From: Bathymodiolus brooksi
Lineage: Eukaryota > Mollusca > Bivalvia > Mytilida > Modiolidae
DNA: 64,000 nt
NCBI GenBank assembly: GCA_963680875.1
Contig: OY804579.1
Span: 55,504,036-55,568,035 of the forward strand
Reading direction: 5' to 3'
Position numbers and translations under genes: made by a program. Positions within the stretch are counted from its first letter, which is position 1. Each line of letters starts with the position of its first letter. The notes under the pieces were generated by a model. It did not search any database, had not been told where the DNA came from, and saw nothing but the letters and a program-made list of their open reading frames with translations. Positions 3,001 through 39,127 of the stretch are shown in pieces.

Positions 3001-6000
3001 AACTGAACTCACTGAATACAAAACGAACAATCACCTCTCATCTTAACTGAACTCACTGAATACAAAACGAACAATCACCTCTCATCTTAACTGAAATCAC
3101 TGAATACAAAACGAACAATCACCTCTCATCTTAACTGAACTCACTGAATACAAAACGAACAATCACCTCTCATCTTAACTGAACTCACTGAATACAAAAC
3201 GAACAATCACCTCTCATCTTAACTGAACTCACTTAACTCACTGAATACAAAACGAACAATCACCTCTCATCTTAACTGAACTTACTGAATACAAAATTAA
3301 CAATCACCTCTCATCTTAACTGAACTCACTGAATACAAAACGAACAATCACCTCTCATCTTAACTGAACTCACTGAATACAAAACGAACAATCACCTCTC
3401 ATCTTAACTGAACTCACTGAATACAAAAAAACAATCACCTCTCATCTTAACTGAACTCACTGAATACAAAACGAACAATCACCTCTCATCTTAACTGAAC
3501 TCACTGAATACAAAACGAACAATCACCTCTCATCTTAACTGAACTCACTGAATACAAAACGAACAATCACCTCTCATCTTAACTGAACTCACTGAATACA
3601 AAACGAACAATCACTTCTCATCTTAACTGAACTCACTGAATACAAAACGAACAATCACCTCTCATCTTAACTGAACTCACTGAATACAAAACGAACAATC
3701 ACCTCTCATCTTAACTGAACTCACTGAATACAAAACGAACAATCACCTCTCATCTTAACTGAACTCACTGAATACAAAACGAACAATCACCTCTCATCTT
3801 GACTGAACTCACTGAATACAAAACGAACAATCACCTCTCATCTTAACTGAACTCACTGAATACAAAACGAACAATCACCTCTCATCTTAACTGAACTCAC
3901 TGAATACAAAACGAACAATCACCTCTCATCTTAACTGAACTCACTGAATACAAAACGAACAATCACCTCTCATCTTAACTGAACTCACTGAATACAAAAC
4001 AAACAATCACCTCTCATCTTAACTGAACTCACTGAATACAAAACGAACAATCACCTCTCATCTTAACTGAACTCACTGAATACAAAACTAACAATCACCT
4101 CTCATCTTAACTGAACTCACTGAATACAAAACTAACAATCACCTCTCATCTTAAATGAACTCACTGAATACAAAACGAACAATCACCTCTCATCTTAACT
4201 GAACTCACTGAATAAAAAAAACAATCACCTCTCATCTTAACTGAACTCACTGAACAATCACCTCTCATCTTAACTGAACTCACTGAACAATCACCTCTCA
4301 TCTTAACTGAACTCACTGAACAATCACCTCTCATCTTAACTGAACTCACTGAACAATCACCTCTCATCTTAACTGAACTCACTGAACAATCACCTCTCAT
4401 CTTAACTGAACTCACTGAACAATCACCTCTCATCTTAACTAAACTCACTGAACAATCACCTCTCATCTTAACTGAACTCACTGAACAATCACCTCTCATC
4501 TTAACTGAACTCACTGAACAATCACCTCTCATCTTAACTGAACTCACTGAACAATCACCTCTCATCTTAACTGAGCTCACTGAACAATCACCTCTCATCT
4601 TAACTGAGCTCACTGAACAATCATCTCTCATCTTAACTGAACTCACTGAACAATCATCTCTCATCTTAACTGAACTCACTGAACAATCATCTCTCATCTT
4701 AACTGAACTCACTGAACAATCACTTCTCATCTTAACTGAACTCACTGAACAATCACCTCTCATCTTAACTGAACTCACTGAGCAATCACCTCTCATCTTA
4801 ACTGAACTCACTGAACAATCACCTCTCATCTTAACTGAACTCACTGAACAATCACCTCTCATCTTAACTGAACTCACTGAACAATCATCTCTCATCTTAA
4901 CTGAACTCACTGAACAATCATCTCTCATCTTAACTGAACTCACTGAACAATCACCTCTCATCTTAACTGAACTCACTGAACAATCACCTCTCATCTTAAC
5001 TGAACTCACTGAACAATCACCTCTCATCTTAACTGAACTCACTGAACAATCACCTCTCATCTTAACTGAACTCACTGAACAATCACCTCTCATCTTAACT
5101 GAACTCACTGAACAATCACCTCTCATCTTAACTGAACTCACTGAACAATCACCTCTCATCTTAACTGAACTCACTGAACAATCACCTCTCATCTTAACTG
5201 AACTCACTGAACAATCACCTCTCATCTTAACTGAACTCACTGAACAATCACCTCTCATCTTAACTGAACTCACTGAACAATCACCTCTCATCTTAACTGA
5301 ACTCACTGAACAATCACCTCTTATCTTAACTGAACTCACTGAACAATCACCTCTCATCTTAACTGAACTCACTGAACAATCATCTCTCATCTTAACTGAA
5401 CTCACTGAACAATCATCTCTCATCTTAACTGAACTCACTGAACAATCACCTCTCATCTTAACTGAACTCACTGAACAATCACCTCTCATCTTAACTGAAC
5501 TCACTGAACAATCACCTCTCATCTTAACTGAACTCACTGAACAATCACCTCTCATCTTAACTGAACTCACTGAACAATCACCTCTCATCTTAACTGAACT
5601 CACTGAACAATCACCTCTCATCTTAACTGAACTCACTGAACAATCACCTCTCATCTTAACTAAACTCACTGAACAATCACCTCTCATCTTAACTGAACTC
5701 ACTGAACAATCACCTCTCATCTTAACTGAACTCACTGAACAATCACCTCTTATCTTAACTGAACTCACTGAACAATCACCTCTCATCTTAACTGAGCTCA
5801 CTGAACAATCACCTCTCATCTTAACTGAGCTCACTGAACAATCATCTCTCATCGTAACTGAACTCACTGAACAATCACTTCTCATCTTAACTGAACTCAC
5901 TGAACAATCATCTCTCATCTTAACTGAACTCACTGAACAATCACTTCTCATCTTAACTGAACTCACTGAACAATCACCTCTCATCTTAACTGAACTCACT

Positions 6001-6310
6001 GAGCAATCACCTCTCATCTTAACTGAACTCACTGAACAATCACCTCTCATCTTAACTGAACTCACTGAACAATCACCTCTCATCTTAACTGAACTCACTG
6101 AACAATCATCTCTCATCTTAACTGAACTCACTGAACAATCATCTCTCATCTTAACTGAACTCACTGAACAATCACCTCTCATCTTAATTGAACTCACTGA
6201 ACAATCACCTCTCATCTTAACTGAACTCACTGAACAATCACCTCTCATCTTAACTGAACTCACTGAATACAAAACAAACAATCACCTCTCATCTTAGCTG
6301 AACTTACTGA
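1..6310. repeat. Satellite array of 33-bp and 44-bp units with 3.78-kb higher-order period
   Basis: The stretch is one tandem array. The core unit (AACAATCACCTCTCATCTTA then ACTGAACTCACTG) is 33 bp. In about half of the array it carries an extra 11 bp (AATACAAAACG) and becomes 44 bp. Blocks of 33-mers lie at about 440-2,490 and 4,220-6,270. Blocks of 44-mers lie at 1-440, 2,490-4,220 and the last units. Rare variants (an AAATGAAC unit, then a unit ending in an A-run) sit at 361-440 and again at 4,141-4,220, exactly 3,780 bp apart, so the whole 33+44 block is itself repeated. The left edge of the window cuts the array. Long minus-strand frames (415-2502 and 4161-6281) exist only because 33 is divisible by 3. 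Confidence 0.97.
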
Positions 6311-6976
6311 ATACAAAAAAGATCACAACATATGACGTTGGAAATCAGTATTTTTTGCTATAGAAAATTACTTATCTGTTATAACAACAGGTTGTTAATC
6401 AACTAATTTAGTAATTTGTCAGTAAAACTAAAACTAAAACTAAGGCCAATTTTCCTCAAGCATCTTTATAACCTTATCCAATTTTCGCTATCCTGTTTAG
6501 ACCCGGTTTGGTTTGCTTGCTCCAAAAGACTTAGATTAATTGACTCTTTTTGACTATGAGTGTAGTTGATGAAGATGATTCTAGAAACGCATCTTGCACA
6601 TCAAATTAGATGTCCACTTTTTAAATTTATTTCAATTATAATTTTTTATATGGTACCATCAAGGATTGGTATAGTAGACTACTACCATATAAATCCTTGG
6701 TACCATCAAATATTGTTAAACATTATCATCTTTTTCTTTGTAATTCGAATAAGAATAGAAATAATAATTTTTATTTTTACACCTGATATCAATGCTCTCT
6801 GGAGCATAAAAAACATTACAAATACGGTTTAAATATTAGACACAAAACAGTACAATAAATAACAGTGTTGGTAGTAGAGTTGTCGAACTTGAGTTAATAC
6901 ACTACATGAACCGAGGCTTTTACTGTATATTTTTACAATCCAGACGAAAGTGACTTTGGAAATTATTTAAAAAAAG
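6311..6976 (+). promoter_or_regulatory. Upstream region and 5' UTR of galactokinase copy A
   Basis: This is the AT-rich spacer between the satellite and the galactokinase start codon. The open frame at 6566-6832 has no recognisable protein and low-complexity composition. No clear TATA box or initiator could be assigned. The core promoter and transcription start presumably lie here, because the start codon follows directly with an A-rich leader (AAAAAAG before ATG). Confidence 0.4.
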
Positions 6977-17510
<10,534 letters not shown>

Positions 17511-22860: not shown

Positions 22861-23052
22861 TATTTGTAACGACATGCAGCAGGGCTATAACTAATTACAA
22901 TGTTGGTTTATATAACTAGGAAACCTGTGTTAATGTAAATAAGAAAATGTGAAAAATATTCATAAATATTTGAATTTACCACTGGTTATCATTTTATATG
23001 ATAAAACAAATTTAATAAAAGTTCAATTACTTGTTTTAATTACACTTAAGTA

Positions 23053-24117
23053 CAATATTTGGTTAAAAGCTCAGCACATTTCTGGTAGTCTTAATAAAAT
23101 TGCTGATTCTTTATCTCGATGTAATTGGCAGCTTTTCAGAGAACTGGCTCAAGAAGCAGACAAACACCAGACAACAATTCCCAGCCATCTTTGGAGGAAT
23201 ATAAATATTGAAGCAGACCGTTTGATTACACATTCAATGGCGGCTAACACATGGAAAACTTACAAAACTGCAGTAGATTCCATAAATGAATTTCGACACA
23301 TTTATGCACTAAGTAATTCATGGTCAATTCCGCTCGATGAAATAATTAATTATATTGCATACTTGTCTTACACGGGATTATCATCCTCAACAATATCTAC
23401 TTACATATCGGGTATTAGTTACGCCATTAAATACGAGGTCTGACGGACTCAACAAATTCATTTCTTGTTACAAAAATGTTAGAAGGTCTTAGGAGAAAGA
23501 GTCGTAGATATACAGATTTAAGGGCTCCTGTCAATTTAGGCTTACTGCATAAGCTTATTAGAGCACTTCTAATAACATGCAGTTCAAATTACGAGGCTCG
23601 TTTATTTGCTTCAGCGTTTAGTTTATTATTTTTCGCGTTATTAAGGGTAGGAGAAATCACAACAGACAGTAAGTCAGTTCCAGGATGTCATACAATTTAT
23701 TTTGAAAATGTTAGTTTTCTTGACGAAGAATTATATTTAAAAATTGTGAGTTCTAAAGCCGACTAAAGACAAAATTCTATCACATTGGTTCTTTCCCCGC
23801 AAAATACAGATGTATGTCCAGTTAAACTATTACGTGAATACTTGAAGGTACGATTTCCTGCTCGCGGCTGTGTCCTTTATTTTTACATTTTGATGATTCC
23901 GTTCTGACAAGATATCAATTCAACTCTGTGTTACAAAAAGCTTTGAAATTCTGCGACGTGACTGACCATATTAGATCTCATTCGTTCAGAATCGGGGGTG
24001 CAACTGAACTAACTAGAATCGGGGTACCAGATAGTGATATTTAAAGTTGGGGTCGTTGGTCTTCTGGGGCATATTTATCTTATATTCGTCTGGATTTTGG
24101 AGTTATTAGTGTTTAAA
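23053..24117 (+). pseudogene. RNase H tail plus tyrosine recombinase, broken
   Basis: In an intact element this protein would cut and rejoin DNA to insert a circular cDNA intermediate. The R-H-R-Y catalytic set can be traced (R in LLRVGE, H and R in HSFR, Y in AYLSY), but only across three reading frames. The two in-frame TAA codons stand where CAA fits the family pattern (ADQRQ, DIQSW), consistent with C-to-T decay. Confidence 0.7.
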
Positions 24118-24936: not shown

Positions 24937-25098
24937 ATGGCTAATCGTATTGTGGATATTAAAGAATTGATACAGCAAGCAAAAGAATCGTTTAAGTTGA
25001 AGTTTGGACAGCTACCTGACAAATGTGCATGTGCACCTGGGAGAGTCAACCTGATAGGGGAACACACAGATTACAATGACGGATATGTTCTTCCCATG
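24937..25098 (+). CDS. GALK1: Galactokinase copy B, exon 1 (residues 1-54)
   Basis: The exon ends CCC ATG|gtaggt in phase 0 and contains the sugar-binding signature [15 protein letters not shown]. Its last 39 nt plus the first 17 nt of the intron are the seed of the minisatellite that follows. Confidence 0.94.
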
Positions 25099-28000
25099 GT
25101 AGGTTAGTATTAGGAGAACGCATGTATTACATTGACAGATATGTTCTCCCCATGATAGGTTAGTAATAAGAGAACACATGCATCACAATGACGGATATGT
25201 TCTCCCCATGATAGGTTAGTAATAAGTGAACACATGTATCGCGATGACGGATATGTTCTTCCCATGGTAGGTTAGTAATAAGTGAACACATGTATCGCGA
25301 TGACGGATATGTTCTTCCCATGGCAGGTTAGTAATAAGAGAACACATGCATCACAATGACGGATATGTTCTCCTCATGGTAGGTTAGTAATAAGAGAACA
25401 CATGCATCACAATGACGGATATGTTCTCTCCATGGTAGGTTAGTAATAAGAGAACGCATGCATCACAATGACGGATATGTTCTCTCCATGGTAGGTTAGT
25501 ATTAGAAGAACGCATGTATTACAATGACGGGCATGTTCTCCTCATGATAGGTTAGTAATAAGAGGACACATGTATCACAATGATGGATATGTTCTCCCCA
25601 TGGTAGGTTAGTAATAAGAGAACACATGCATCACAATGACGGATATGTTCTCCCCATGGTAGGTTAGTATTAGAAGAACGCATGTATTACAATGACGGGC
25701 ATGTTCTCCTCATGGTAGGTTAGTAATAAGAGAACACATGCATCACAATGATGGATATGTCCTCCATGGTAGGTTAGTAATAAAGGTTAGTAATAAGAGA
25801 ACACATGTATCACGATGACGGATATGTTTTCCCCATGGTAGGTTAGTAATAAGAGAACACACAGATTACAATGACGGATATGTTCTCCCCATGGTAGGTT
25901 AGGAAGAAGAGAACACAAGTATCACGATGACAGATATGTTCTCCCCATGGTAGGGTAGTAATAAGAGAACACATGCATCACAATGATGGATATGTCCTCC
26001 ATGGTAGGTTAGTAATAAAGGTTAGTAATAAGAGAACACATGTATCACGATGACGGATATGTTTCCCCATGGTAGGTTAGTAATAAGAGAACACACAGAT
26101 TACAATGACGGATATGTTCTCCCCATGGTAGGTTAGTAATAAGAGAACACATGTATCACAATGACGGATATGTTCTTCCCTATGGTAGATTTGTAAGAAG
26201 AGAACACATGTATCACAATGACGGATATGTTCTCACCATGGTAGGTTTGTAAGAAGAGAACACATGTATCACAATGACGGATATGTTCTCACCATGGTAG
26301 GTTTGTAAGAAGAAAACACATGTATCACAATGACGGATATGTTCTTCCCCATGGTAGATTAGTAAGAAAAGAACACATGTATCATAATGACGGATATGTT
26401 CTCACCATGCTAGGCTAGTATTAGGAGAACTCTTGTATTATAATGGTATGTACGCACTACAACTTGTGCCTTCGTGGAAGTTACATAAATACAAACTGAC
26501 TGCATGATTGCAATGTGTTAATGAAATAACATGGAATCATAATGAAGAATATTTTCTACTAATGATTAAGAGATCGACCATTTAACTTTTTTGGAGGGAA
26601 TTTCTGTTTTCCTCCCTAGTCAGGGAAAAAATTCACGCGAAACAAATCAAATTATCTCTTTTTTAGACATGAACATTCAGTAATTTTCTTTCCAAATAAT
26701 GCTAAACATTTCTCCTTGAAAGTCGCATCTTCCAGACCAATTAATTTGTATCTTTTTTCAGACCCCCCACCCCCAAAGTTAAATGGTTGTTCCCAAAACA
26801 TACAAGAGAAATAAGTTACAATGTAGGATCAGAGTGAATATGTTCAATTGTGATGGCCATCATGTGTTTACTATTGAAGCACACATTTGTAATGGAGGGG
26901 CCGTCGTTGTCGTGGTCCTGTGGTAGATTAAAGCTACATATGCAATCAGTGCCTATCACCACTGAAGTTGTGAGTTCGAATCCCGTTCAATCGAGGTGTA
27001 CTCGATACAACATAATGAGATAAAGTTTGTCGGTGACTTGCAACAGGTCGGTGGTTTTCTCCGGTTTCCTCCACCAATACAACTGACCGCCATGATATAA
27101 CTGAAATATTATTGAAAGTGACGTTGAACACCATAAAACCTCCCATTTGTAAAGGACAACACATTGATCATTCGTGTGTTTTTTAGTTCAATTTAAGGAG
27201 AAGATTTTAAAAACATTTTACAGTTCAATGCTGAATTTTGTCCTAGCATCCATTATATATTTTAGTTCACCAGAAATGCACAATCTGTGGAAAGGTCCTG
27301 CAAAGAACATTTTATTTACAATGTGCTTAATAAAATATGTAACTGTCCATCAAATCAAAATGTTCAATTTCTGATCTAAACAAAACTAATAAGAACATTT
27401 TGTGAAAGAGAACATCGAATGAAACTCTTTCAAAGCTTAGTTTATTGGTTTTAAAAGAGACAACTTTACATACAATAGACGAACGAAATGTGATATAACG
27501 TACATGCCAATATTCAATTATGGCACAGGCACTAGACACTTTGATTACACATTGATATTTTTTTCTACCATTGACTGTATGTATTTTTATTGGTTTAGTG
27601 TCTAGTGCCTGTGAATATGCCTGTGAATATGCCCTTTAATATTACTTATTCTACAGACATTTGTCTGTAGAGTTTTAGACTGGCTGGTATCATAATCTTT
27701 ATATTCCCATCCAGATGACGGCGGATAAGGATAACAAAAAGACAGACTGTGCTAAAACAAATGACAAACAAGTGACACTGAAGATTCTTTTTTATGTTCC
27801 TTTTACCTTCAGGCAATTCAGTTGATGACAGTAGTTGTTGGCAGAAAAACAGATTCTGGTGTGTGTAAAGTCTTAACCTGTGCTGATGTAGGGAAAGCAA
27901 ATTATGTGGAGTTTCCAACACCAACAAAATTATGTCCCCTTGTCCCCGGAGATATACACTGGGCAAACTATGTAATGGGCGTAATAAAGCATTATGTTGG

Positions 28001-31000
28001 TAATTGGACATTTGTTTCTGTTAAATCTTTATTCTACTTCTGTTAGCAATGGATTTACATGTAATTTGACTGAGTAAGTTTCAATCTTTGTATCATTAAG
28101 AAATTTATAAAACTGATAAACAGAACTAAAGAGAAAAGACCTATTCCTATATGCAGAGTACTAAAGAGAATTGGTATATTCTTTTAAACAGAGAACTAAA
28201 GAGAATAGATTTATTATTTATTTTTTTATGCAGAGAACTACTAAAACAATCTTATTAAATAAAAAAAATAAAAAATATTCCACATTAGTTTTCTAAACAT
28301 GACACCAAAGCCATGTATGTTTCCTATTAAAGAATAAAGATACTATAGTCAAAGATGAATTCCAGGTCAAGTATGTTCATTCGATGCAGTGATTGTATCT
28401 TCTGTACCATTTGGAGGTGGTGTTTCCAGTTCAGCCTCGCTACAAGTAGCAGTGTATACATTCCTGGACGAATTAACCAACCAACAGCATGACAAAATAT
28501 CAAAACAAGACAAGGCACGACTATGTATGGAGGCAGAACATGAATTTATAGGTCTACCAGATGGTATCATGGACCAACTTATATCACTGACGGCCAAGTC
28601 AGATCACGCCCTTCTACTGGACTGTAGGTAAACCACCCTTATTTGTAAATAAACGTTAGAGAATACCGAAGGGACAATCAAAAATGAACAATCCAGAGAA
28701 ACTGGCAAAATAAGGTACACAAGACAAAGAAAAACAAAACAAAAATACAACAATGTGGTGGACACCAATATACCCAAACAAACACAAATAACGTAAATAA
28801 GACACGAGCCCTCATACAAACAACTGGAGGCAAAGACGAACCGAACATCGTTTATATGCAGAAATCGTATCGAACACCACAACGCGGAAATCAGAACGTA
28901 AAGACAGATAATATGTAATGTATTCATAAAAATAAGTAATGATCAATGTAAGTGAGAGATATAGAGAATACGTTTTCATTTCTTATATTCTTATTAGTGT
29001 TGATACATTAACCCACGTGTAATTTGTGAACTTTTTTTACTACATGCTTAAAAATAAGTCTGATTGGTTATAACTGTTCATAGCCTGGGAAGCATTAAGT
29101 TTGCTATGTAATGTGTGTCACATTGCTAGAGCCATTTGTAAGTACGTGTGCAAAATGCTATCGAGTATTTATTAATTATGATCATATGGCTTCAGTTGAT
29201 AATCTCCTAAAATATCATATTTGCTCTATGAAAAAATCTTGAATTCTTATTGCAATCAAATATCTGGACGTTTTTGTAATCTTTTTGCCTCCTCTCGAAT
29301 AGTTTGTTTTAACCTATATATAATAGGTCACTGGAAAGTAAGGAGATACCTATGACAGACCAGTCTATCTCCATTTTGTTGACAAATTCCAACATATCAC
29401 ACAACCTTATTCACACAGAATATCCTAAGCGTACAAGCCAATGTAAAGAAGCAGCTAAACTTCTAGGAGTCGACAGTTTACGTGATGTCACAAGGAAGAG
29501 CCTGGAAGGTATGATGACAGATAGTATTGGGAGTAGTAATGTGTGTTCAGTTTTAGTCAACCTAAAAACCTAGGGCGGCCAAAAGGGAATCCCAAAAATA
29601 GCGGGAAAACCCTAAAACTAAAAATAGAAAACCCCGCCCACCGATTCGACGTCATAATAAGGTGTGTTATATAATCCGATTAAAGGTATGCATCGCATTG
29701 CGACATATTTAGACCAATGAAAAATAGGAACAGGATTATATTACCTAATAAGGTTGCAAATACCCTTGTACTCAAATCCGTTTAAGGACATGTTATTTGC
29801 TTATCCGGATTGATGACGATGCATACGTTTGCAGTGCATTGTCTCATTTTTCGACTAACAATAGTTTTGCATATATAAAGCAGGACATATTATTTTAGTT
29901 TTGTTAGTTATCAAACACATGCCTAAAAATGTTAGAATGTGATTTAATTTTCATAAATCTAAACATCAATATTATAATGTCAAATTATTACAATATGAAT
30001 TATTTTGAATTAATCTAACGAGATTAAGTTGTCAAAAAAGAATTAACTTCGGAAAATTATACTCTCGGGGATTAAGTTGTAAAAAGAAAAAGAAAAAAAA
30101 GAGATTAATGTTGAATGACATATACAACCCTGCACACACATCCGCTTAAGGACAAACCGCTTGCTTATCCGGATTATGACGATGCATACGTGTGCAGCGC
30201 ATTGCGTCATATTTCGACCAATGAAAGTTCTGTCGGTGTGTATGTTCGATGAGAGTGGGGAGATAACTCAATGTGTATGTTCAAAGGGAAGTAATTATAC
30301 GCTTCCAGTATGGTTAAGCGTATTCGAAGGGAAGTAACTCTGAGCATAACACAACGACACGATTTCGTTGGTATCATTTATTACGTATAATACATTCTAT
30401 AATAAAGACACGGCAATGCTTGACAATATACAATAGTCGTTTTAACACGATTTCGTCCGTTTATTAAGTACAATGCATTCTATAATGGGAACATTTACCA
30501 ATAGTACGGGAACGATTCTAGAAAAAGACGCGTACTTTCCGAGTTTAATGGACCGACATACCTCACGGCTGATATTTTGCAAAATGATGAAGTATACATT
30601 ATATTATCATTTAAGCCCTGTCGTAGAATTTTCCCATGGTGCATTTTTTTGTTAGAGCTCTTGAAAGTGAAATTTCGTAGATTTTTCAAATTACAACTTC
30701 AATTACAAAAAGGCTGTAAGAACATTAAACAAAGTAAATTGTTGACACAAAAAAGTTATTGTCAGAATTTTCAAAAAACAAGCAAACATTTTAACATAGA
30801 AGATTTAGCATCTGACGGATAGCTAAATAATTATTGAGCATTTCTCGGAAGAATATGAAAGCTTTTTCCGATTGCAGTACCTGTCAATGTGAATATAATT
30901 TAATGAATTACGCGTAGATAGTTTTAAGGTGAATAAATTTGTATATTTATCAGTTCTTTCACACTCTATAATTACAAATCACTCAAAAAGGTACAAATTT

Positions 31001-34000
31001 AACCTTAAAACAGCCATTTTTCGAAACCACTGACTCATTAAATTTATGGACGTTTTCGTTCTCGTTACTTTCCCCTGTATTAATTTCACCCTTATTCATG
31101 ACAATATACGTGTCGTGAAGTCTTGTTTTGACATTATCGTTCGAATACGTTTGTTAAATACATAAATCATTGTTCATTGTTGAGTTTAAAAGTGTTTTGT
31201 GCAAGTTCTTTTTTTTAAATGTATGGGGTTTTTTAAGTGTGTTTTACTTTGTTTGTTTTGGTGGTTTAGTTAGAATTTTAGTACCGATCGGAATAGACAT
31301 GAAATGTTCCGGAAAAAGTTTCGTCCTGTATATATAGTCCTGAACACTTGAAAGTTTTATATTGTTGTTTAAATTTGTTTTATGATATACCTTATTTTTG
31401 TTTTGTGTTGAATTTAAGATTGTTTTGTACCAGTTTTTATTCCGATGTGGTCATTTTAATTTGTTACTTATTGCCAATCAGACTATATCTGATTCGTTCT
31501 TGGAAATGTGTAGTCCCGTAAAGTTTGCTCACTCACTATCGAAAAAGAGTCGAACGGTCAGCAGTTGGGAATTATGCACTCGAATTATCCTCCAGTCTAT
31601 GTTTGTCAATCAACAAATGGTTAAAAGAAACAGTAATGGGCGGATCGTGATTAAATCTTCTGATAATGATGTTTTACTGCTTTCTCTCCACTTCTATTCC
31701 AAAATGACCAATTTGATATCGACGAGCTTTGGTTTCAAACGGGTAGCATAACGTCAGTAAAAGACGGTCGGCGATTTATACCAGTGCATGACCTATATAA
31801 CTCACTTGGAGCTGAAATGGCAAACATTTTACCAGTAGCTCACTCCCTTACTGGGTGCGACACAACGTCATCCTTTTTTTGGTATTGGCAAGAAGACAGT
31901 TTATAAAATTCTAAAACAAAATACAACAAAATACCAAACTTTGACAAATCTAGCTAGTTCTGATGTTGATACACGAGTTGAAGCAGGCAGGCTGTTGGTA
32001 GCTGATCTGTATGACCAAAAGGTAGTGCTAAGTCTGTTCACAGAGATCTAAATAAACTCGGGGTAAAATTAGCTTTGTCAAAAGATTCCTCTCCTGTCAA
32101 ACTTCCTCCATCTGAAGCAGCATTTAGACAACACATACTTCGTGTTGCATTCCAAGTGTATGTATGGACACATGCTAATGAAGCTAAACCACCGCCTAGG
32201 TCACCTTTAGAGTATGGATGGAGAAATGAGAACAAATACTTAATGCCAAAGTACGTTGAAGGACCCATGACGTTTGACTTCTTGCAAGACCTTGTATGTA
32301 TGTGTAAATGCAAGTTCATTTGCAGCAAGAATTGTGTTTGCGTTGAACAAAATTTATCGTGTACGAGCATCTGCGGTTGTCAAGGAAATGAAGAATGTAG
32401 AAATCAGCTCTCACACCAATTGCCAGTAGCTGACAATTTGGGAAATGACGAGGATTGTCCAAGCGACATCTAAAGCAGATACCTGAATGAAAAAAGAAAA
32501 AAAAAGAAACCTGCCATTGGTCTCAGACCTTGACGCGGTTGGTGGGCTTTCAACTAACAAGAGACCTCTGTAAAAGGCATAGTATACTTTTTACCATTGT
32601 AGTTATACTCTTTTATTAAAAGTAAATCAATTGTTGTCCTACTTTTAGGTTGGTGTGGTAGAGTTTAGACTTCATACACCCCGTTATTTCTCGTAAGATT
32701 TTTATGAAACTTTCCAGAAAATATCTTCATATACTATATTTTTCTATGATTAAGCTCCATTTGTAATTTCTGTATTTTCTTTTTCAATTTTGATGCACAC
32801 ATTTTGAAAATACATTTTTTGTACTTCCCGACGGCAGGGGCATATATCAGTAACCTTTACCCGATATTTTCAAACAAAAAAGAAATTATTTGATCAAAAA
32901 CATAACACTACATAATGCCAGCATTTCTTAATTGTAATAGTAAACTGTTTTCAAGGAAAATATCCATTATATAAAAAAATTGCCATTTTCGACATTTTCC
33001 ACAAATTACTTTTAACCCCAATATTGCAAAAACTGCACCATAGTGGAACTCTACGACAGGGCTTCATCGAAGCACCTCGGTAATATCTTTTAAATAAGAC
33101 CAAAAGTAGCCGTGAGGTATTCCGGTCCATTAAAATTTCGATTTTTACTTGATTTTTCCTCCACTACAAGACAATGCACGACAAAATACAATTATAACAG
33201 TTCGATTGTTTATTAAGTTCAATACATTCTATCATAAAGACAATTACAATGCATGACAATATACAATGTTAACAGTTAGATCTTAAAATTTTGTCCTCGT
33301 TTCCTTTTATATCAACGGTGGAAAAGTCTTTCACTATGTCCGGCAGCTCCATTCCTCGATGTCTCCGTTTGAAGGAGTACAGGCAATACAGTCCGCAGGT
33401 ATCGGTGTCGTCGGGTTGGATTTGAGATGAACAGTAGTAATATTGCGGTCCGTTGACGATCAGGACGTTGTCGAAACGGCGGNNNNNNNNNNNNNNNNNN
33501 NNNNNNNNNNNNNNNNNNNNNNNNNNNNNNNNNNNNNNNNNNNNNNNNNNNNNNNNNNNNNNNNNNNNNNNNNNNNNNNNNNNNNNNNNNNNNNNNNNNN
33601 NNNNNNNNNNNNNNNNNNNNNNNNNNNNNNNNNNNNNNNNNNNNNNNNNNNNNNNNNNNNNNNNNNNNNNNNNNNNNNNNNNAGTGCATAGGTCGTCATT
33701 TTGTTATATATATATATAGTGTATGTGGTCTTTAGTTACAAAAGCGAATAGTTTTTCTTCATAATCTTCATATAATTTTCTGATTTAAGATTTTTTTTAA
33801 ATCACGATTTAAACACAAATTTTAATTTAAATATGACAAACTACAATGTAATTATACCATGTTTGAATTTAATTTCAAGAATACAAGACTGTGTTTAAAT
33901 CGTGAAAAGTTGAAACTATAAATCAAACATTTATATGAAGATCATGACTAAAAACTTCAAGACAGTTTGCTTTTGTCAGCGAAAATTGCTGCAAAATTGG

Positions 34001-37000
34001 TCAAGAAATGACCTCTGTATATTTGGGAAAAAATGTGGTTTTACATGAAATACGAGATATAGGGAAAAAATCGTAGGTGACGAACAATTACTGTGTACCA
34101 TTAATGCCAGTAATGTCTTTGTCATGTTGTAAAATAAATTACATTGGAAACTTGCTGTCCAACAGGTACATCTTTTTACTTGTATATTACATGTTGACAA
34201 ACCTTTTGTTTTTCTATTTTTTTTAAGACAAACAGAACCAGCTAGATGACGTATTATACAAACGTACACGACATGTTGTTACAGAAATCACAAGAACAAG
34301 AGAGGCTGCTGAGGCATTATCTAGAAGAGATTATACAACATTTGGAAGACTCATGGTTGAAAGTCACATTTCATTAAGGTTTATATGCAAATATGTAGGA
34401 CTATCCTGAAATATTTTTAACTAGACTCCGCTGTCTATACTAGCAACTTTGTCAGAATGATACTAAAGCGAATTGTCGCCTGTTCCATAATTTATAATAT
34501 TTTTAGATATCAATACATACAAATTAAATAATTATGAGATGGCTGGATTGGTGGTTAAAAATTAGGTATAATATTTTCCCTCTCCATCAATACATTTAAC
34601 CCTAGAAGGATATTTTCCCTCTCCATCAATACATTTAACCCTAGAAGGATATTTTCCCTCTCCATCAATACATTTAACCCTAGAAGGATATTTTCCCTCT
34701 CCATCAATACATTTAACCCTAGAAGGAACCAAAGTGACAGACACTTATATTGTAAGGATCTATTTCCATTATTAAACTGTTATCAATACAGGTAATATTT
34801 GTAAGAAGAAAATTTGAAGATACCAAAGAGGTAATCAGAAGCCGTAAATTGAAGAAGGGCAGACAATACCGGTACAATGGCCGACACAGAAAGGACAAAA
34901 GGTCAAACAATGATCGACAAAGCATTACATATAAATCTCGAGATTGAGCAACACGAATCTTTAGCATCTTATTTTATTTTATTGCAAGTGATCAAAATAT
35001 TAATTTTCATTTCTTATGTACATTAAGGATGTGCGTAAATTCAATGGACATAAGCAGTAACATAATATTTTTGTTGTATTTTGTCCAATTGAAACAGAAA
35101 TAGTCCTCAAACCATTATTGTCATGTCCGGTGATTGACTATTTATCACATCTTGTTCCTTGTAACCAGAATGTCCCTAAACTACTTCACATCGGCATTGC
35201 TGTAAATAGTCCAATCTGATTGAAATCAGATTTCACTTGCTCCCCCTTTTCTGATATGTAAATACACAAATGGACATGTAGTCGTGTTCCTTATTATCTA
35301 GTATCGCAAATCGCAAGTTAAATATCTATCGTATCAAATCTTAAATGATTTTTTTTATTTTGTAGAGATGATTATAATGTATCATGTGATGAGCTAGATG
35401 AACTAATGGAAGCAGCATTAGAATGTGACGGTGTGTATGGTTCCAGGATGACTGGAGGAGGGTTTGGTGGATGTACTGTAACTCTGGTTAAAACAAGTTG
35501 TGTCGATAAAGCTATTCAATCCATAATGGTAAACCTAAGAAAAACGCAGATATTTAATTTAGTGCGCACGACGCGTTTGTTACTAGTATAGCCTTCATCA
35601 GACATTGTCAAAGTCAAACGACTGGTAATCCAAATGATTTGACCTCCATGGTGCTGCGATCTTATGGTAGTTGCATCTAGGCATGCATTCATTGACTATC
35701 ACCAATTAAGTTGGTGAGATCTTTATCTGATAACGTTGTCAGCAGTTCGGTCTATTTCCCCAGTAACCACCAAGATACTACTGATATTATTGCTGAACAT
35801 GGCGTTAAACACAAATAACCCAACATAACTCTAAGATTTCCCTCTTTTTTATGATTAAATGTTTTCATTCATGGTAACAACACGAGTTGTTTCCCTTTAG
35901 CTACAATTGCTCTTGACTGAATGTTTTATTAAAAGTCTAACGGAAACGGGTTTCTTTCTGTACTTCAATGGATTGTGTTGTAATATGAAACAGGTGCTTA
36001 CCTGTAGTGCCAGCGAAGCAAAATCCACATTTAAATCATGTAAATCCTTGGGATGATTGAACTAGAAATTTTATTTACTTCTGTGTACATTTTGGAGTGT
36101 ACTGTAGTACAATGTAAGGATGCTCTTTCCATCTATTGAAACAGGCACGGCCATGAATGTTCGCGAATCTGAAAATTATCTGCCAATTTCACGCTCATTC
36201 AGTGCATCAAAATAGTGTCGAGATTTTTTGGGCCGAGATATATTGGGGACGACTTTTTTTTTAGGGCCGAAATATATCGAGGACGACTGTTTTTAGGGCC
36301 GAATCTAGTCTCATTCAATCGAACTCTCGTGATCTCGTGATCTCGCCGCCGCCATATTGTACGCGTGTCTCCAAGGATACAGGAAGTAGTTCTTATGAAC
36401 GAAAGATTTTTAGGCCATCAGTATATTTTTTTTCTCTCTCGATATTTCTAGCATAAGTGCCAGCTTTGCTGGCATAATAGCGAGCATCACAAGATGCGAG
36501 CTAAACAGCAACATGTGTGTAAGGAGATGAATCAATACATTTTGTATATACGATCAATATCAACCGGAAATGGATTCTAAGTTTCAGCATAGAATGGACA
36601 ATCGGAGTGAAGTACAGGAAATAGCCTTTTAATTTGAATAAAAAATAACTATCCAGTTTAAAAAAAAAAAAAAAAAAATTAGAAATCAAACCGTACAGCT
36701 TCTTTACATGAAACGATTAATTTATTTTAGACCTTCTTGTTTCGCCCCTAAAGAACGGTCGGCCCTATAAAAAAGTCGTCCCCCATATATCTCGGCCCTA
36801 AAAAAAGTCGTCCCCGATATATCTCGACCCAAAAAATCTCCTTTGCAATAGAATTAACTGGGTAAGTCGAATTGAAGAACAAAGAAAAATATTCAAGAAT
36901 AATGAAGAAAAGCCGGAACCCAAAGCTACTATTTGTACATGTTCGGAGTTCGGTAATTTTGTTATTACCCTTATGTACATGTCTATGCGTAGATGCGATG

Positions 37001-39127
37001 CTCGCCTGTAGGCTGTGCCTAATCCATATTATCTCATATTTGGTATGGTCAAGACGTTTGGGCATTTCATAGTTGGAGTTATCTTTCATTTGGCTTAATA
37101 TGATAAATTGTGAACTCCGGTCGGTTGTAATCCGGAGTCTGATTTGTATGTTATGTAACTTGTTATGTTGGAGCGGTTAAAATAGATTATTTGTGAACAG
37201 ACGTGATTTTCATTGTGTCAATTATTATTTCAAGATATTTATGATGACTGCGGCTCGGCAGCATTACAGTGTAAGTATTATACCATCTGGTTTAGTCCTT
37301 AACAAGGCGGAAAAGGACTTGTCACAAGTAGGGGTTGTTTCTCCAAATCTATGTGAAAAAGAAGTTGGACCAAACCCAGCAACTCTACCACCAGAATGTT
37401 GTTTGCCAGTGATGTTGGTAATAAAAGAAATCACGCAGCAGTGACATGATAATACTCTGGAAAGGACTTAAAGATACAACACACTGAAAGTCTCAAAAAC
37501 AGATGAGCTTTTCTCAAGTCATTAGTTTGTGTGGTGAGGCAAATTGGACTGTAGTTTGTGCTCTTACTACCGATTTTCCAGGGCAATCCGATGTTGTTGG
37601 ACTAGCAACATGATTCACACCTCTGTACTATAAGTTCAAAATCTTTCATGGAAATATGATCTTAAGAAAAGCTCGTACCATTTCGAGAATGATAACATTA
37701 TAGTCATGGATGATGTGTTCAATTGTTGGGATCAGTATGACGATTTTGAAAGTATACCTTAGTATTTTAGAAAATCCGTAATTGGTTTGTCCCCATGTCA
37801 AATACACTCTTTAATTTAAGTCCATATGAACACTGCGTTGTTCGTAATCGAGTGATGTCCTTTCTACCATGGCAATCGACAAACCTCGAATAAATCCACT
37901 GTCCTAATGTATTCGAACAAATGTTTTGATTTGTAGACCGATGTTTGCCAATTTCCATTCTTGTGCCTGTTCATATGTTTGGTTGAGGCTACAACAGAGA
38001 AACATTGTATATTCCACACTGGTGTTGGCTACAGATATCATGGGATGGAGTCCCGGGTGGACATTGAAGATTCCACGATGGAAATAAACGTTAGAGAATA
38101 CCGAAGGGGCAATCAAAAATGGGCAATCCATAGTTACAATTATTATTATTTTGAAAATTAAGATTGTTAAATGTTAAATAATCCATATGACATTGTTATG
38201 ACAAATGGACAATGTTAGGATGTGCAATAGATATTAATCTTGGTGACTATTAACCCTCTTCATAGATACACAATCACCTGCAACTATACACCTAGATATG
38301 CTCTATAGAAATGCTTTACACATCTACGATTCTAGCTATTACGTTGGAATTTATATATTAAAAAATCACGTGAAAACACTTGTGTTAAGATTCTTTTAAA
38401 TATTCACAATATTCAACAAATACCGATAAGAGTTTACAACCAAAGTCATTTTAAAAGTGGTGTTTAAGAGGTATGTGTTATTTCATGGTTATATATGGGT
38501 TTAAAAACTCCACTTTCAACAATATGTCAGTTATATCGTGGCAGTCAGTTTTAATAGGAGTACCACCCAGAGAAAACTACCGAACTGCTACAAGTCATTA
38601 ACAAACCATAACGTTACACATTTAAAATAAACTTGTTTTCATCATGATATAACTGCAAAATTGCTGAGTTGGCGTTAAACAACAATCACTCATTCACTCA
38701 TAATGTTACATCGTTTGCACCTCGCAACTGCCGGTAATCGAACTCACAACTTTTCGTGATACAAACAAATTATGTAGTTTATTGCATAGGTAGTTCCGAG
38801 GTGAATCCAACTACCATACGATCACATACACTACGGCCCCTATGGTTTAAAAAAAATGTTAATAGTAAAATAAGTTAATACTTTAATCATGAAGTTTTAC
38901 GGTGATGGTAAAAAATTCCACCAACATCATACAAGACCAACCAACTGCCCTGCCTTACCAAAATACAAAGAAGATAACGAGAGAAGCTGAGTATATGACC
39001 TAGTAAACGGACAAGTGACTGTTATACTAGTTAAACGACTATGCTTTATTTCCAGGACAAGTACTCGGGGGATGCTACTTTTTACATCTGTAAACCATCT
39101 GATGGTGCAAGAGGAATTCAACTATAA
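24937..39127 (+). CDS. GALK1: Galactokinase (GALK1-like), copy B, complete, 7 exons, 392 aa
   Basis: Second galactokinase, head-to-tail with copy A. CDS joins 24937-25098, 27813-27999, 28366-28627, 29327-29508, 34228-34378, 35366-35528 and 39056-39127. Exon lengths (162, 187, 262, 182, 151, 163, 72) and all phases match copy A except for one codon lost in each of exons 3 and 7. An in-frame ATG at 24931 would add two residues; 24937 was chosen for its A at -3 and G at +4 and for length identity with copy A. Motifs: [23 protein letters not shown] (131-141), catalytic D186 in GLPDGIMDQ, and [11 protein letters not shown]. The loop before the catalytic Asp reads LPDG where copy A and human read MPCG. 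There are no inactivating changes. Possible poly(A) signal AATAAA at 39266. The introns are heavily invaded by repeats. Confidence 0.95.
25060..26430 (+). repeat. 56-bp minisatellite made of the exon 1/intron 1 junction of galactokinase copy B
   Basis: The unit is exonic sequence for [13 protein letters not shown] (GAACACACAGATTACAATGA then CGGATATGTTCTCCCCATG) followed by the splice donor and 11 more intron bases (GTAGGTTAGTAATAAGA). About 24 copies follow the real exon. Most keep ATG|GTAGGTTAGTAATAAGAG, so each carries a donor-like site. Most copies differ from the exon at CACACAGATTAC (CACATGCATCAC or CACATGTATCAC), but units near 25,856 and 26,085 have the exonic form. A block of about 235 bp is duplicated within the array (25741 and 25976 in register). 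56 is not a multiple of 3 and units contain TAATAA, so the array cannot extend the protein. Confidence 0.93.
26895..27150 (+). mobile_element. tRNA-like-headed SINE, second family, plus orientation
   Basis: The head contains GTCGTGGTCCTGTGGTAG and the B-box-like GAGTTCGAATCCC. The body has GGTCGGTGGTTTTCTCCGG and CCTCCACCAATACAACTG. The tail has CATGATATAACTGAAATATT and GACGTTGAACACCAT. It is the plus-strand counterpart of the element at 10338. Confidence 0.78.
27524..27613. repeat. 17-bp perfect inverted repeat around a 56-nt spacer
   Basis: CACAGGCACTAGACACT (27524-27540) is the exact reverse complement of 27597-27613. It may be a very short MITE or the stem of a hairpin in the pre-mRNA of copy B. 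Confidence 0.7.
27813..27999 (+). CDS. GALK1: Galactokinase copy B, exon 2 (residues 55-117)
   Basis: The exon lies between CTTCAG| and G|gtaatt, 187 nt. It encodes [20 protein letters not shown] to [13 protein letters not shown]. It is clearly the homologue of copy A exon 2 but substantially diverged, so the duplication is not recent. Confidence 0.94.
28000..28365 (+). repeat. Short degenerate tandem repeat in copy B intron 2
   Basis: At about 28,120-28,245 a unit of about 50 bp beginning AACTAAAGAGAA and ending TATGCAGAG occurs about three times with drift. The rest of the 366-bp intron is AT-rich. Confidence 0.5.
28366..28627 (+). CDS. GALK1: Galactokinase copy B, exon 3 (residues 117-204)
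   Basis: The exon lies between TTCCAG| and AG|gtaaac, 262 nt. It holds [11 protein letters not shown] and catalytic D186 in GLPDGIMDQ. It is one codon shorter than in copy A, in the variable loop after FLDEL. Confidence 0.94.
28651..28780 (-). repeat. Dispersed bivalve-type repeat fragment
   Basis: AAATAAACGTTAGAGAATAC followed by CGAAGGGACAATCAAAAATG also occurs at 38079-38130. It resembles a dispersed repeat common in bivalve transcripts and genomes. It lies in copy B intron 3. Confidence 0.5.
29327..29508 (+). CDS. GALK1: Galactokinase copy B, exon 4 (residues 204-265)
   Basis: The exon lies between AATAG| and G|gtatga, 182 nt. It encodes [20 protein letters not shown] then [15 protein letters not shown], aligned with copy A exon 4. 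Confidence 0.93.
29776..30222. repeat. Two diverged direct copies of an about 85-bp segment
   Basis: AAATCCGTTTAAGGACATG to CATTGTCTCATTTTTCGAC (from 29776) recurs as CATCCGCTTAAGGACAAAC to GCATTGCGTCATATTTCGAC (from 30138), sharing GCTTATCCGGATT and GACGATGCATACG. A weaker third match is near 29,680-29,720. Confidence 0.6.
30358..30500. repeat. About 85-bp tandem repeat, left part
   Basis: The unit contains ACGATTTCGT, TTTATTAAGTACAAT, CATTCTATAATAAAGACA and TGACAATATACAAT. One and a half units are visible here. The same unit continues at 33,170-33,275 beyond the inserted inverted-repeat element. Confidence 0.65.
30544..33134. mobile_element. 2.6-kb element with about 105-bp terminal inverted repeats
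   Basis: The left arm (30544-30650) contains TTTAATGGACC, ATACCTCACGGCT and AAGCCCTGTCGTAGA. The right arm (about 33,028-33,134) contains these in reverse complement, TCTACGACAGGGCTT, AGCCGTGAGGTAT and GGTCCATTAAA. Between them lies a broken gene of a family expanded in marine invertebrates (31,400-32,473). This is the structure of a DNA transposon or a captured-gene element. No transposase of a named superfamily was recognised. Confidence 0.6.
31400..32473 (+). pseudogene. Broken copy of a repetitive gene family ([14 protein letters not shown] proteins, Cys-rich C-terminus)
   Basis: Across several frames the translation includes [20 protein letters not shown], then [13 protein letters not shown] at about 31,838, then [20 protein letters not shown] and [19 protein letters not shown]. 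It ends in a Cys-rich tail ([31 protein letters not shown]) with a stop at 32471-32473. Such proteins recur as multicopy uncharacterised genes in cnidarians and molluscs and look transposon-associated. Frame changes near 31,690, 31,880 and 32,020 break the ORF; 32,075-32,473 stays open. Function is unknown; a nuclease-like N-terminal domain is a guess. Confidence 0.55.
33170..33275. repeat. About 85-bp tandem repeat, right part
   Basis: GTTTATTAAGTTCAATACAT then TCTATCATAAAGACA and ATGCATGACAATATACAAT match the array at 30,358-30,500 in the same orientation. The array thus flanks the inverted-repeat element on both sides. Confidence 0.6.
33269..33482 (-). pseudogene. C-terminal fragment of a C5/C48-like cysteine protease of a mobile element
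   Basis: On the minus strand a 70-residue open frame leaves the gap and ends at TAA (33269-33271). It contains [20 protein letters not shown] then [14 protein letters not shown]. The pattern Q, then about six residues, then T/S-CG-yCly, then R..G....IV..F, is the C-terminal active-site block (Gln and nucleophilic Cys) of adenain- and ULP1-like proteases. Polinton/Maverick elements and several other transposons encode such proteases. GC content is clearly above that of its surroundings. The N-terminal half with the catalytic His lies in or beyond the gap, so completeness cannot be judged. Confidence 0.5.
33483..33682. other. Assembly gap, 200 N
   Basis: Exactly 200 N, probably a fixed-size placeholder. 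The true length is unknown. It lies inside intron 4 of copy B, beside the protease fragment. Confidence 0.98.
34228..34378 (+). CDS. GALK1: Galactokinase copy B, exon 5 (residues 265-315)
   Basis: The exon lies between TTTAAG| and AG|gtttat, 151 nt as in copy A. It encodes [20 protein letters not shown] and [12 protein letters not shown]. The donor GTTTAT is weaker than the donors of the other exons. Confidence 0.92.
34379..35365 (+). other. Intron 5 of copy B
   Basis: It holds a four-copy 39-bp repeat (34571-34726). At about 35,210-35,265 is a single end of the MITE family seen at 39321 and 41945 (CAATCTGATTGAAATCAGAT, CTTGCTCCCCCTTTTCTGAT). The rest is AT-rich. Confidence 0.6.
34571..34726. 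repeat. 39-bp tandem repeat, exactly 4 copies
   Basis: ATATTTTCCCTCTCCATCAA then TACATTTAACCCTAGAAGG, four identical units totalling 156 bp. Identity points to recent expansion. Confidence 0.96.
35366..35528 (+). CDS. GALK1: Galactokinase copy B, exon 6 (residues 315-369)
   Basis: The exon lies between TTGTAG| and ATG|gtaaac, 163 nt. It contains [20 protein letters not shown] and the glycine motif [17 protein letters not shown]. Confidence 0.95.
36220..36840. mobile_element. 621-bp foldback element with internally duplicated arms
   Basis: The left arm begins GAGATTTTTTGGG (36220-36232) and the right arm ends CCCAAAAAATCTC (36828-36840). Each arm of about 87 bp contains a tandem pair of the motif GGCCGAGATATAT.GGGGACGACTTTTTT, so the pairing can slip by one motif. 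The interior (36,307-36,753) has no coding signal. No target-site duplication is evident. Confidence 0.75.
38515..38845 (-). mobile_element. Second-family SINE (-) interrupted by a 5'-truncated SINE tail (+)
   Basis: The outer element shows the reverse of the body and a head ending in CTACGGCCCCTA, as in the copy at 10338. At about 38,620-38,700 a plus-strand tail of the first family interrupts it (CATGATATAACTGCAAAATT, GGCGTTAAACAACAATCACT). CATAACGTTACA on the left and CATAATGTTACA on the right look like the duplicated target of the inner insertion. Confidence 0.65.
39056..39127 (+). CDS. GALK1: Galactokinase copy B, exon 7 (residues 370-392, stop TAA)
   Basis: The exon lies after TTTCCAG|. 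It encodes [20 protein letters not shown] then IQL and stop, 72 nt. A possible AATAAA poly(A) signal is at 39266-39271, 139 bp downstream. Confidence 0.94.
   Translation, partial: DKYSGDATFYICKPSDGARGIQL

What the first reader, a model, noticed from the sequence alone, without database searches (positions are those of the whole stretch)
25060..26430. A minisatellite grown from a gene's own exon/intron junction, carrying about 20 decoy splice donors
Seen directly: the last 39 nt of galactokinase copy B exon 1 plus the first 17 nt of intron 1 are repeated about 24 times straight after the real junction. Most units keep ATG|GTAGGTTAGT. Copy A has nothing similar. If transcribed, the pre-mRNA offers the spliceosome a long series of near-identical donors. 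Use of any downstream donor would add sequence with TAATAA stops, so donor choice could tune the amount of functional enzyme, and array length could vary between individuals. Regulation is inference; the junction origin is visible.
Basis: partly seen in the sequence, partly recalled or inferred. Interest (0 to 1): 0.75.

Follow-up and report, generated by a model that had tools for sequence, protein, structure and literature searches.

The report
Minisatellite built from a splice junction
In a mussel galactokinase gene, the 56 bases spanning the end of the first exon and the start of the first intron have been copied 23 more times in a row, so a transcript would carry a long row of look-alike splice sites; tandem arrays are very common in the sampled genome, so this one is most likely a tolerated accident rather than a control device.

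Summary
Galactokinase copy B of a mytilid mussel has an intact seven-exon reading frame (392 aa). Its real junction (exon 1 ends 25098, donor 25099) is followed by 23 further copies of one 56-bp unit (39 nt of exon, 17 nt of intron), ending near 26445. All 23 keep ATG, 18 keep GT, 12 keep ATG|GTAGGTTAGT exactly. An overlapping donor four bases on leaves 22 of 23 with at least one GT donor. A donor in any of the 23 copies would give M54-V-G-stop, so decoy use can only spoil the message. One search of the own genome found the junction array only here.

The regulatory reading lacks support: the donor 9-mer is matched or exceeded in conservation by 11 of the 47 other windows, and its +1 G is lost in 4 of 23. 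In 20 sampled 10-kb stretches, 21.7% of bases lie in tandem arrays, so an array across a junction is not surprising. Best reading: a passenger minisatellite with leaky, non-productive splicing (no RNA data). Closest precedent: the human IFI6 minisatellite, whose repeat donors are used; here the unit is out of frame and carries stops. Units also hold AG|GT, as in intron gain by tandem duplication.

The parts
24937..25098 (+). Coding exon 1 of galactokinase copy B; its last 39 nt (25060-25098, encoding [13 protein letters not shown]) are the exonic part of the repeat unit
   Evidence: tblastn, Pfam PF10509 and the gene model
25099..25115 (+). Real splice donor of intron 1 (ATG|GTAGGT) and the 17 intron bases that form the rest of the unit; an overlapping second donor-like site TAG|GTTAGT starts at 25103 (its use would shift the frame, stop after 73 aa)
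   Evidence: Gene model, donor scores, read-through
25060..26445 (+). 56-bp minisatellite: the real junction unit plus 23 further junction units; ends in a degenerate partial copy
   Evidence: TRF and unit parsing
25155..26410 (+). 23 copied junctions at 25155, 25211, 25267, 25323, 25379, 25435, 25491, 25547, 25603, 25659, 25715, 25769, 25838, 25894, 25950, 26004, 26072, 26128, 26185, 26241, 26297, 26354, 26410; 18 have GT
25659..26185 (+). Block duplication inside the array: 25659-25950 against 25894-26185, 92.5% over 293 aligned columns
   Evidence: blastn
27813..27999 (+). Exon 2 of copy B; acceptor AG at 27811-27812
28366..39127 (+). Exons 3-7 of copy B (28366-28627, 29327-29508, 34228-34378, 35366-35528, 39056-39127); open reading frame of 392 aa, GT-AG at every intron
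6977..7138 (+). Exon 1 of galactokinase copy A, same intron position, donor ATG|GTAAGT at 7139, no array (control)

Best explanation
A 56-bp segment spanning the exon 1/intron 1 junction of an intact galactokinase paralogue was tandemly duplicated and then grew by slippage or unequal exchange, as minisatellites seem to do widely in this genome. The pre-mRNA would carry 23 junction copies after the real donor, most with a usable-looking donor. The real donor is probably used often enough for the gene to work; some transcripts use a copy, stop at M54-V-G-stop and are lost. The array is a tolerated passenger with a leak, not a regulated device. Shown: junction origin, copy number, donor content, stops, array-rich sampled genome. 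Inferred: transcription, which donors are used, decay of the wrong transcripts, neutrality.
For: Exon-derived unit, 23 extra copies, 18 of 23 with GT. The exonic part encodes a conserved signature, fixing the direction of copying. The donor 9-mer is not unusually conserved: 12 of 48 windows, itself included, do as well, and +1 G is lost in 4 of 23. Nested block copies and identical units (u13=u17, u21=u22) fit slippage or unequal exchange. A 301-bp query over the junction gave 21 matches, all at this locus (that search scored one candidate place and may skip common words). 27 arrays in 200 kb sampled, 21.7% of bases; the window is alike at 21.3%. With random seeding, 0.22 of the window's 14 arrays would be expected to span a galactokinase junction. 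Copy B is intact and groups with Mytilus edulis and M. trossulus proteins at 100/100, so it has been kept as a gene and is presumably spliced correctly at least in part.
Against: No RNA evidence either way. 15 of 23 copies score the same 7.84 as the real donor, so the donor itself gives no reason to prefer the first. By local folding the real donor is less accessible (0.003) than 20 of 23 copies, which reach 0.113. The donor 9-mer matches the real junction at 0.957, against 0.827 for the other exon columns and 0.771 for the other intron columns; the array has fixed changes at 7 of 56 columns, none in the donor. That could mean retention, though 11 of the other 47 windows do as well. Three of the first four copies lost GT (AT, AT, GC) against 2 of the other 19 (P = 0.021), which could mean selection against near decoys; the test was chosen after seeing the data, two of the three may share one mutation, and all three keep the overlapping GTTAGT.
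Confidence: 0.6

Rival explanations
1. A tunable non-productive splicing switch: copied donors sink a share of pre-mRNA into truncated transcripts, and repeat number or splicing factors set galactokinase B output.
For: A donor in any of the 23 copies, primary or overlapping, gives M54-V-G-stop, with the stop 47 to 1,306 nt before the exon 1/2 junction. 17 donors scoring 7.8 or more in the array (real one included) against 31 in the other 62.6 kb. 20 of 23 copies are predicted more accessible than the real donor. [quoted passage not shown]
Against: Donor columns not unusually conserved; 5 of 23 lost GT; no RNA data; arrays are very common in the sampled genome.
Confidence: 0.14
2. Proto-introns inside an intron: units hold AG|GT, so array segments can be removed stepwise (recursive or nested splicing) before or with intron 1, leaving a normal mRNA.
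For: Of 23 unit-to-unit intervals 20 start with GT, and all 23 end in AG and are preceded by AG. The unit AG scores a median 1.67, reached by 9% of 2,921 other AGs; 2 of the 12 real acceptors of copies A and B score lower. A TGAC or TGAT branch-like motif lies about 23 nt before the AG (by eye). Joining the real donor to a unit AG would regenerate ATG|GTTAGT (score 5.6).
Against: Weak acceptors: 10 of 12 real ones score higher, and 18 of 236 other AG|GT sites in the window do as well. 56 nt is short for a metazoan intron (recalled). No RNA data.
Confidence: 0.1
3. Copy B is crippled: the copied donors take nearly all splicing and the gene makes little enzyme, with copy A doing the work.
For: Searching with B (8,000 candidates scored) listed nothing closer than 73% (M. 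edulis), whereas A has two unnamed 98% matches on contigs of 1.4-1.5 kb that look like transcripts. B seems to evolve faster: 73% to M. edulis, against 85.5% for A to M. galloprovincialis.
Against: Seven exons, splice dinucleotides and the galactokinase alignment are intact. Absence from that database may only mean low or tissue-limited expression.
Confidence: 0.13
4. Assembly artefact.
For: The only gap in the window is exactly 200 N (33483-33682), so the assembly is scaffolded.
Against: No gap in the array; units differ from one another (mean identity 0.865) with nested block structure; it lies on a 133.5-Mb contig.
Confidence: 0.03

Closest known systems
IFI6 (6-16, G1P3) minisatellite, human (Turri, Cuin, Porter 1995, Nucleic Acids Res 23:1854; title seen in reference lists; paper not held)
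   Same: A minisatellite whose units provide splice donors
   Different: There downstream repeat donors are used and give isoforms (passage in PMC4526556; the 12-bp in-frame unit is recalled). Here the unit is 56 bp, not a multiple of three and carries stops, so use of a copy is non-productive.
[quoted passage not shown] ATP2A1, potato RdRp, fission yeast SPOG_01682 and SOCG_00815; passages of PMC4974935, and PMC3629103)
   Same: Tandem units with a proto-splice site (AGGT; for the fission yeast genes PMC3629103 itself says AGGC), so that unit-to-unit intervals can run donor to acceptor
   Different: Here the array lies inside an existing intron and copies a real exon/intron junction; no new intron is shown
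Recursive splicing ratchet points (abstract and passages of PMC8605326)
   Same: Juxtaposed AG|GT in an intron
   Different: Known ratchet points are abundant in long fly introns; here the intron is 2.7 kb with 19 of 23 copies holding AGGT in series and weak acceptors
Ordinary intronic minisatellites, such as those polymorphic in Sparus aurata growth hormone introns (passages of PMC3045353)
   Same: Tandem array in a first intron, likely to vary in length
   Different: Here the unit includes coding sequence and a donor

Membership tests
Minisatellite | Head-to-tail copies of a unit of some 10-100 bp | tested here: met
IFI6-type donor minisatellite | Array starts at an exon end and units carry donors | tested here: met
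   18 of 23 copies with GT
IFI6-type donor minisatellite | Downstream repeat donors used in mRNA | not testable with these tools
   No RNA reads available
IFI6-type donor minisatellite | Donor choice yields coding isoforms | tested here: not met
   A donor in any of the 23 copies gives M54-V-G-stop
Intron gain by tandem duplication | AG|GT in the units giving GT-AG intervals | tested here: met
   20 of 23 intervals GT to AG; 19 of 23 copies hold AGGT
Intron gain by tandem duplication | A new intron is spliced out between units | not testable with these tools
   No RNA reads available
Recursive splicing ratchet point | Acceptor directly abutting a donor | tested here: inconclusive
   Acceptor median 1.67, overlapping donor mostly 6.36
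Recursive splicing ratchet point | Splicing intermediates at the site | not testable with these tools
   No nascent RNA data
Galactokinase (GALK1 type) | Complete ORF with signature and full-length alignment to solved galactokinases | tested here: met
   roles of single residues are recalled

The most novel reading that the evidence does not exclude
Junction-derived arrays are a recurring product of this array-rich genome. This one then acts as a length-dependent sink of pre-mRNA into non-productive transcripts, so that minisatellite length polymorphism sets the expression of a metabolic paralogue, and the same units can act as proto-introns.
Probability: 0.1. Interest if true: 0.75.

Novelty: new variant of a known kind. 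Interest (0 to 1): 0.4.

Why it matters
It is a natural experiment in splice-site choice: one gene offers the spliceosome some twenty near-identical donors at 56-nt spacing, only the first of them productive. Measuring which are used would test how cap proximity, first-come commitment and exon length decide between equal donors. It also shows what a genome with about a fifth of its sampled sequence in tandem arrays may have to tolerate in its genes.

Tried and rejected
Mobile-element origin: a 27-nt stretch of the unit has no exact match in viral contigs (that collection may leave out records of this genome). The junction with its 5' flank (301 bp) matched only this locus in the own genome, 21 of 21 matches. 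The 13-mer ATGGTAGGTTAGT occurs 28 times in 2.0 Gb, 13 of them here; the control (pattern read backwards) occurs 168 times, so the 13-mer is not enriched genome-wide. Of the 15 other sites, 7 were fetched and each holds it once, both strands counted (one search had counted one strand only). RNA structure: the real donor's accessibility is 0.003 against a median 0.015 for 1,496 other GTs, 20 of 23 copies are more accessible than it, and fold z-scores are -0.65 and -1.07; no stable structure to build on. Rfam: 0 matches in the window at gathering scores. Selection to keep donors: not seen beyond other windows. In arrays compared, 3 of 36 (this one included) have at least 0.4 strong donors per unit on one strand, so repeated donors alone are not rare; the junction origin is what stands out. 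Planned base rate from exon loci of a large family (PF00069) in the own genome: not completed. Limits: donor and acceptor matrices and the U1 5' end were recalled, human-like, and used only for ranking. The 1,700-2,400 junction-spanning arrays that random seeding would give genome-wide rest on assumed junction numbers. The 20 stretches are evenly spaced on four contigs (C1, C3, C4, C5), not random.

Full report
What is there. Galactokinase copy B has seven coding exons (24937-25098, 27813-27999, 28366-28627, 29327-29508, 34228-34378, 35366-35528, 39056-39127), each intron GT-AG, reading 392 aa (this is the first of 4 models that the script allowed, the others being 2-4 aa shorter at two acceptors). 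It aligns over residues 6-389 with solved galactokinases such as 6q8z and 1wuu (human by recall). Copy A (6977-17510) has the same intron positions and reads 394 aa. In a 20-row tree B groups with Mytilus edulis and M. trossulus proteins (100/100) and A with two unnamed records; a wider set with M. galloprovincialis has 96/93. A is 85.5% identical to M. galloprovincialis and 98% to two unnamed records. The window thus comes from a mytilid mussel, probably not Mytilus itself (inference). The assembly has 2.0 Gb in 136 contigs. A search for the galactokinase signature (PF10509) found four places: the two in the window, and two on contig C3 some 2.6 kb apart that may be one more distant gene.

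The array. Directly after the real junction, 23 more copies of a 56-bp unit follow: 39 nt matching the end of exon 1, then 17 nt matching the start of intron 1. Spacing is 56 bp, with 54 and 57 twice each and 68 and 69 once each. All 23 keep ATG before the junction; 18 have GT, 1 GC, 3 AT, 1 CT; 12 keep the exact 13-mer; 19 keep AGGT; 22 have GT at the primary or the overlapping donor. The exonic part encodes [13 protein letters not shown] within the PF10509 match, so the array comes from the exon and not the reverse. Copies are on average 0.836 identical to the real junction and 0.865 to each other; two pairs are identical over the unit, and 25659-25950 repeats as 25894-26185 at 92.5%. Two copies (donors 25894 and 26128) match the exon end at 38 of 39 positions, the 15 others that were scored at 31-34 (6 of 23 copies, with shifted spacing, were left out). 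That mosaic fits exchange with the exon or retention of an old state.

What it could do. With recalled human-like weights the real donor and 15 of 23 copies score 7.84; the overlapping TAG|GTTAGT scores 6.36. The real donor ranks second of copy B's six donors, after exon 4; copy A's exon 1 donor scores 10.38. Donors of 7.8 or more number 17 in 1.39 kb of array (the real one included) against 31 in the remaining 62.6 kb. A donor in any copy reads M54-V-G-stop because TAG follows the real junction at once; the stop lies 47 nt before the exon 1/2 junction for the first copy and more for the rest. The one exception is the overlapping site at the real junction (25103), which shifts the frame and stops after 73 aa. 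So the copies cannot make useful isoforms. Which donor wins cannot be told from sequence: SRSF1 and hnRNP A1 are described as favouring intron-proximal and intron-distal donors respectively (passage of PMC5585400), and the real donor here is the most distal. Local folding predicts 20 of 23 copies to be more accessible than the real donor, though all values are low (0.000-0.113). This counts against an easy win for the real donor.

Proto-introns. [quoted passage not shown] The acceptor signal is modest: median 1.67, with 10 of 12 real acceptors of copies A and B scoring higher. This is anatomy without RNA evidence.

Selection or passenger. The donor 9-mer has mean consensus frequency 0.957 against 0.919 elsewhere; 12 of 48 contiguous windows, itself included, do as well, and +1 G is its weakest column (0.83) (11 of 48, which kept a gap column). 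Against this, the donor 9-mer stayed closer to the real junction (0.957) than the other exon (0.827) and intron (0.771) columns, because the 7 columns with a fixed change all lie outside it. Three of the first four copies lost GT (P = 0.021, chosen after the fact). On balance I see no clear sign of a maintained device.

Base rate. Under one rule (period 12 or more, 3 or more copies, score 100 or more), 20 sampled 10-kb stretches hold 27 arrays in 15 stretches, 21.7% of bases; the window holds 9 arrays, 21.3%. With 14 arrays by a looser count, random seeding predicts 0.22 arrays across the 24 galactokinase junctions of this window. A junction-derived array is therefore not surprising here. In the window, 1 of 14 arrays touches a galactokinase coding exon; exons of other genes were not mapped. 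That it persists in an intact gene is the interesting part.

Known precedents. The human IFI6 minisatellite provides splice donors (original not read). Here the unit is out of frame with stops, so this is a non-productive variant. The listings of my paper searches showed no non-productive junction array; the library holds open-licence papers only and I read passages, so this shows little.

Verdict. Interest is moderate.

Noticed in passing
L020-L039 (20 sampled 10-kb stretches of the own genome): 27 tandem arrays in 15 of 20 stretches, 21.7% of bases; two stretches (L029, L038) are arrays end to end.
   Followed up: partly
1-6318: A 44-bp array of about 140 units gives long open frames on the minus strand (695 and 706 aa) because three units make 132 bp.
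   Followed up: no
26896-27137 and 10349-10599: A repeat of about 250 bp in intron 1 of copy B and, inverted, in intron 2 of copy A, 79% identical over 260 columns; looks like a short interspersed element (recalled look, not tested).
   Followed up: no
22949-23443: An open frame with a phage-integrase-like N-terminal domain (PF02899, 22.4 bits against a cut-off of 22.3) upstream of copy B, perhaps the remnant of a tyrosine-recombinase element.
   Followed up: no
25855-25893 and 26089-26127: Two array copies match the real exon end at 38 of 39 positions, while the 15 others scored match at 31-34, suggesting exchange between exon and array.
   Followed up: partly
L021:9138-10000 and L039:865-1309: Two other arrays carry 0.86 and 0.83 strong donor-like sites per unit on one strand; whether they lie in genes is unknown.
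   Followed up: no
P0008 (Mytilus trossulus copy B relative): Its predicted isoform X2 (344 aa) lacks most of the stretch encoded by exon 4 of copy B (by eye), so splicing of this paralogue may vary in other mussels.
   Followed up: no
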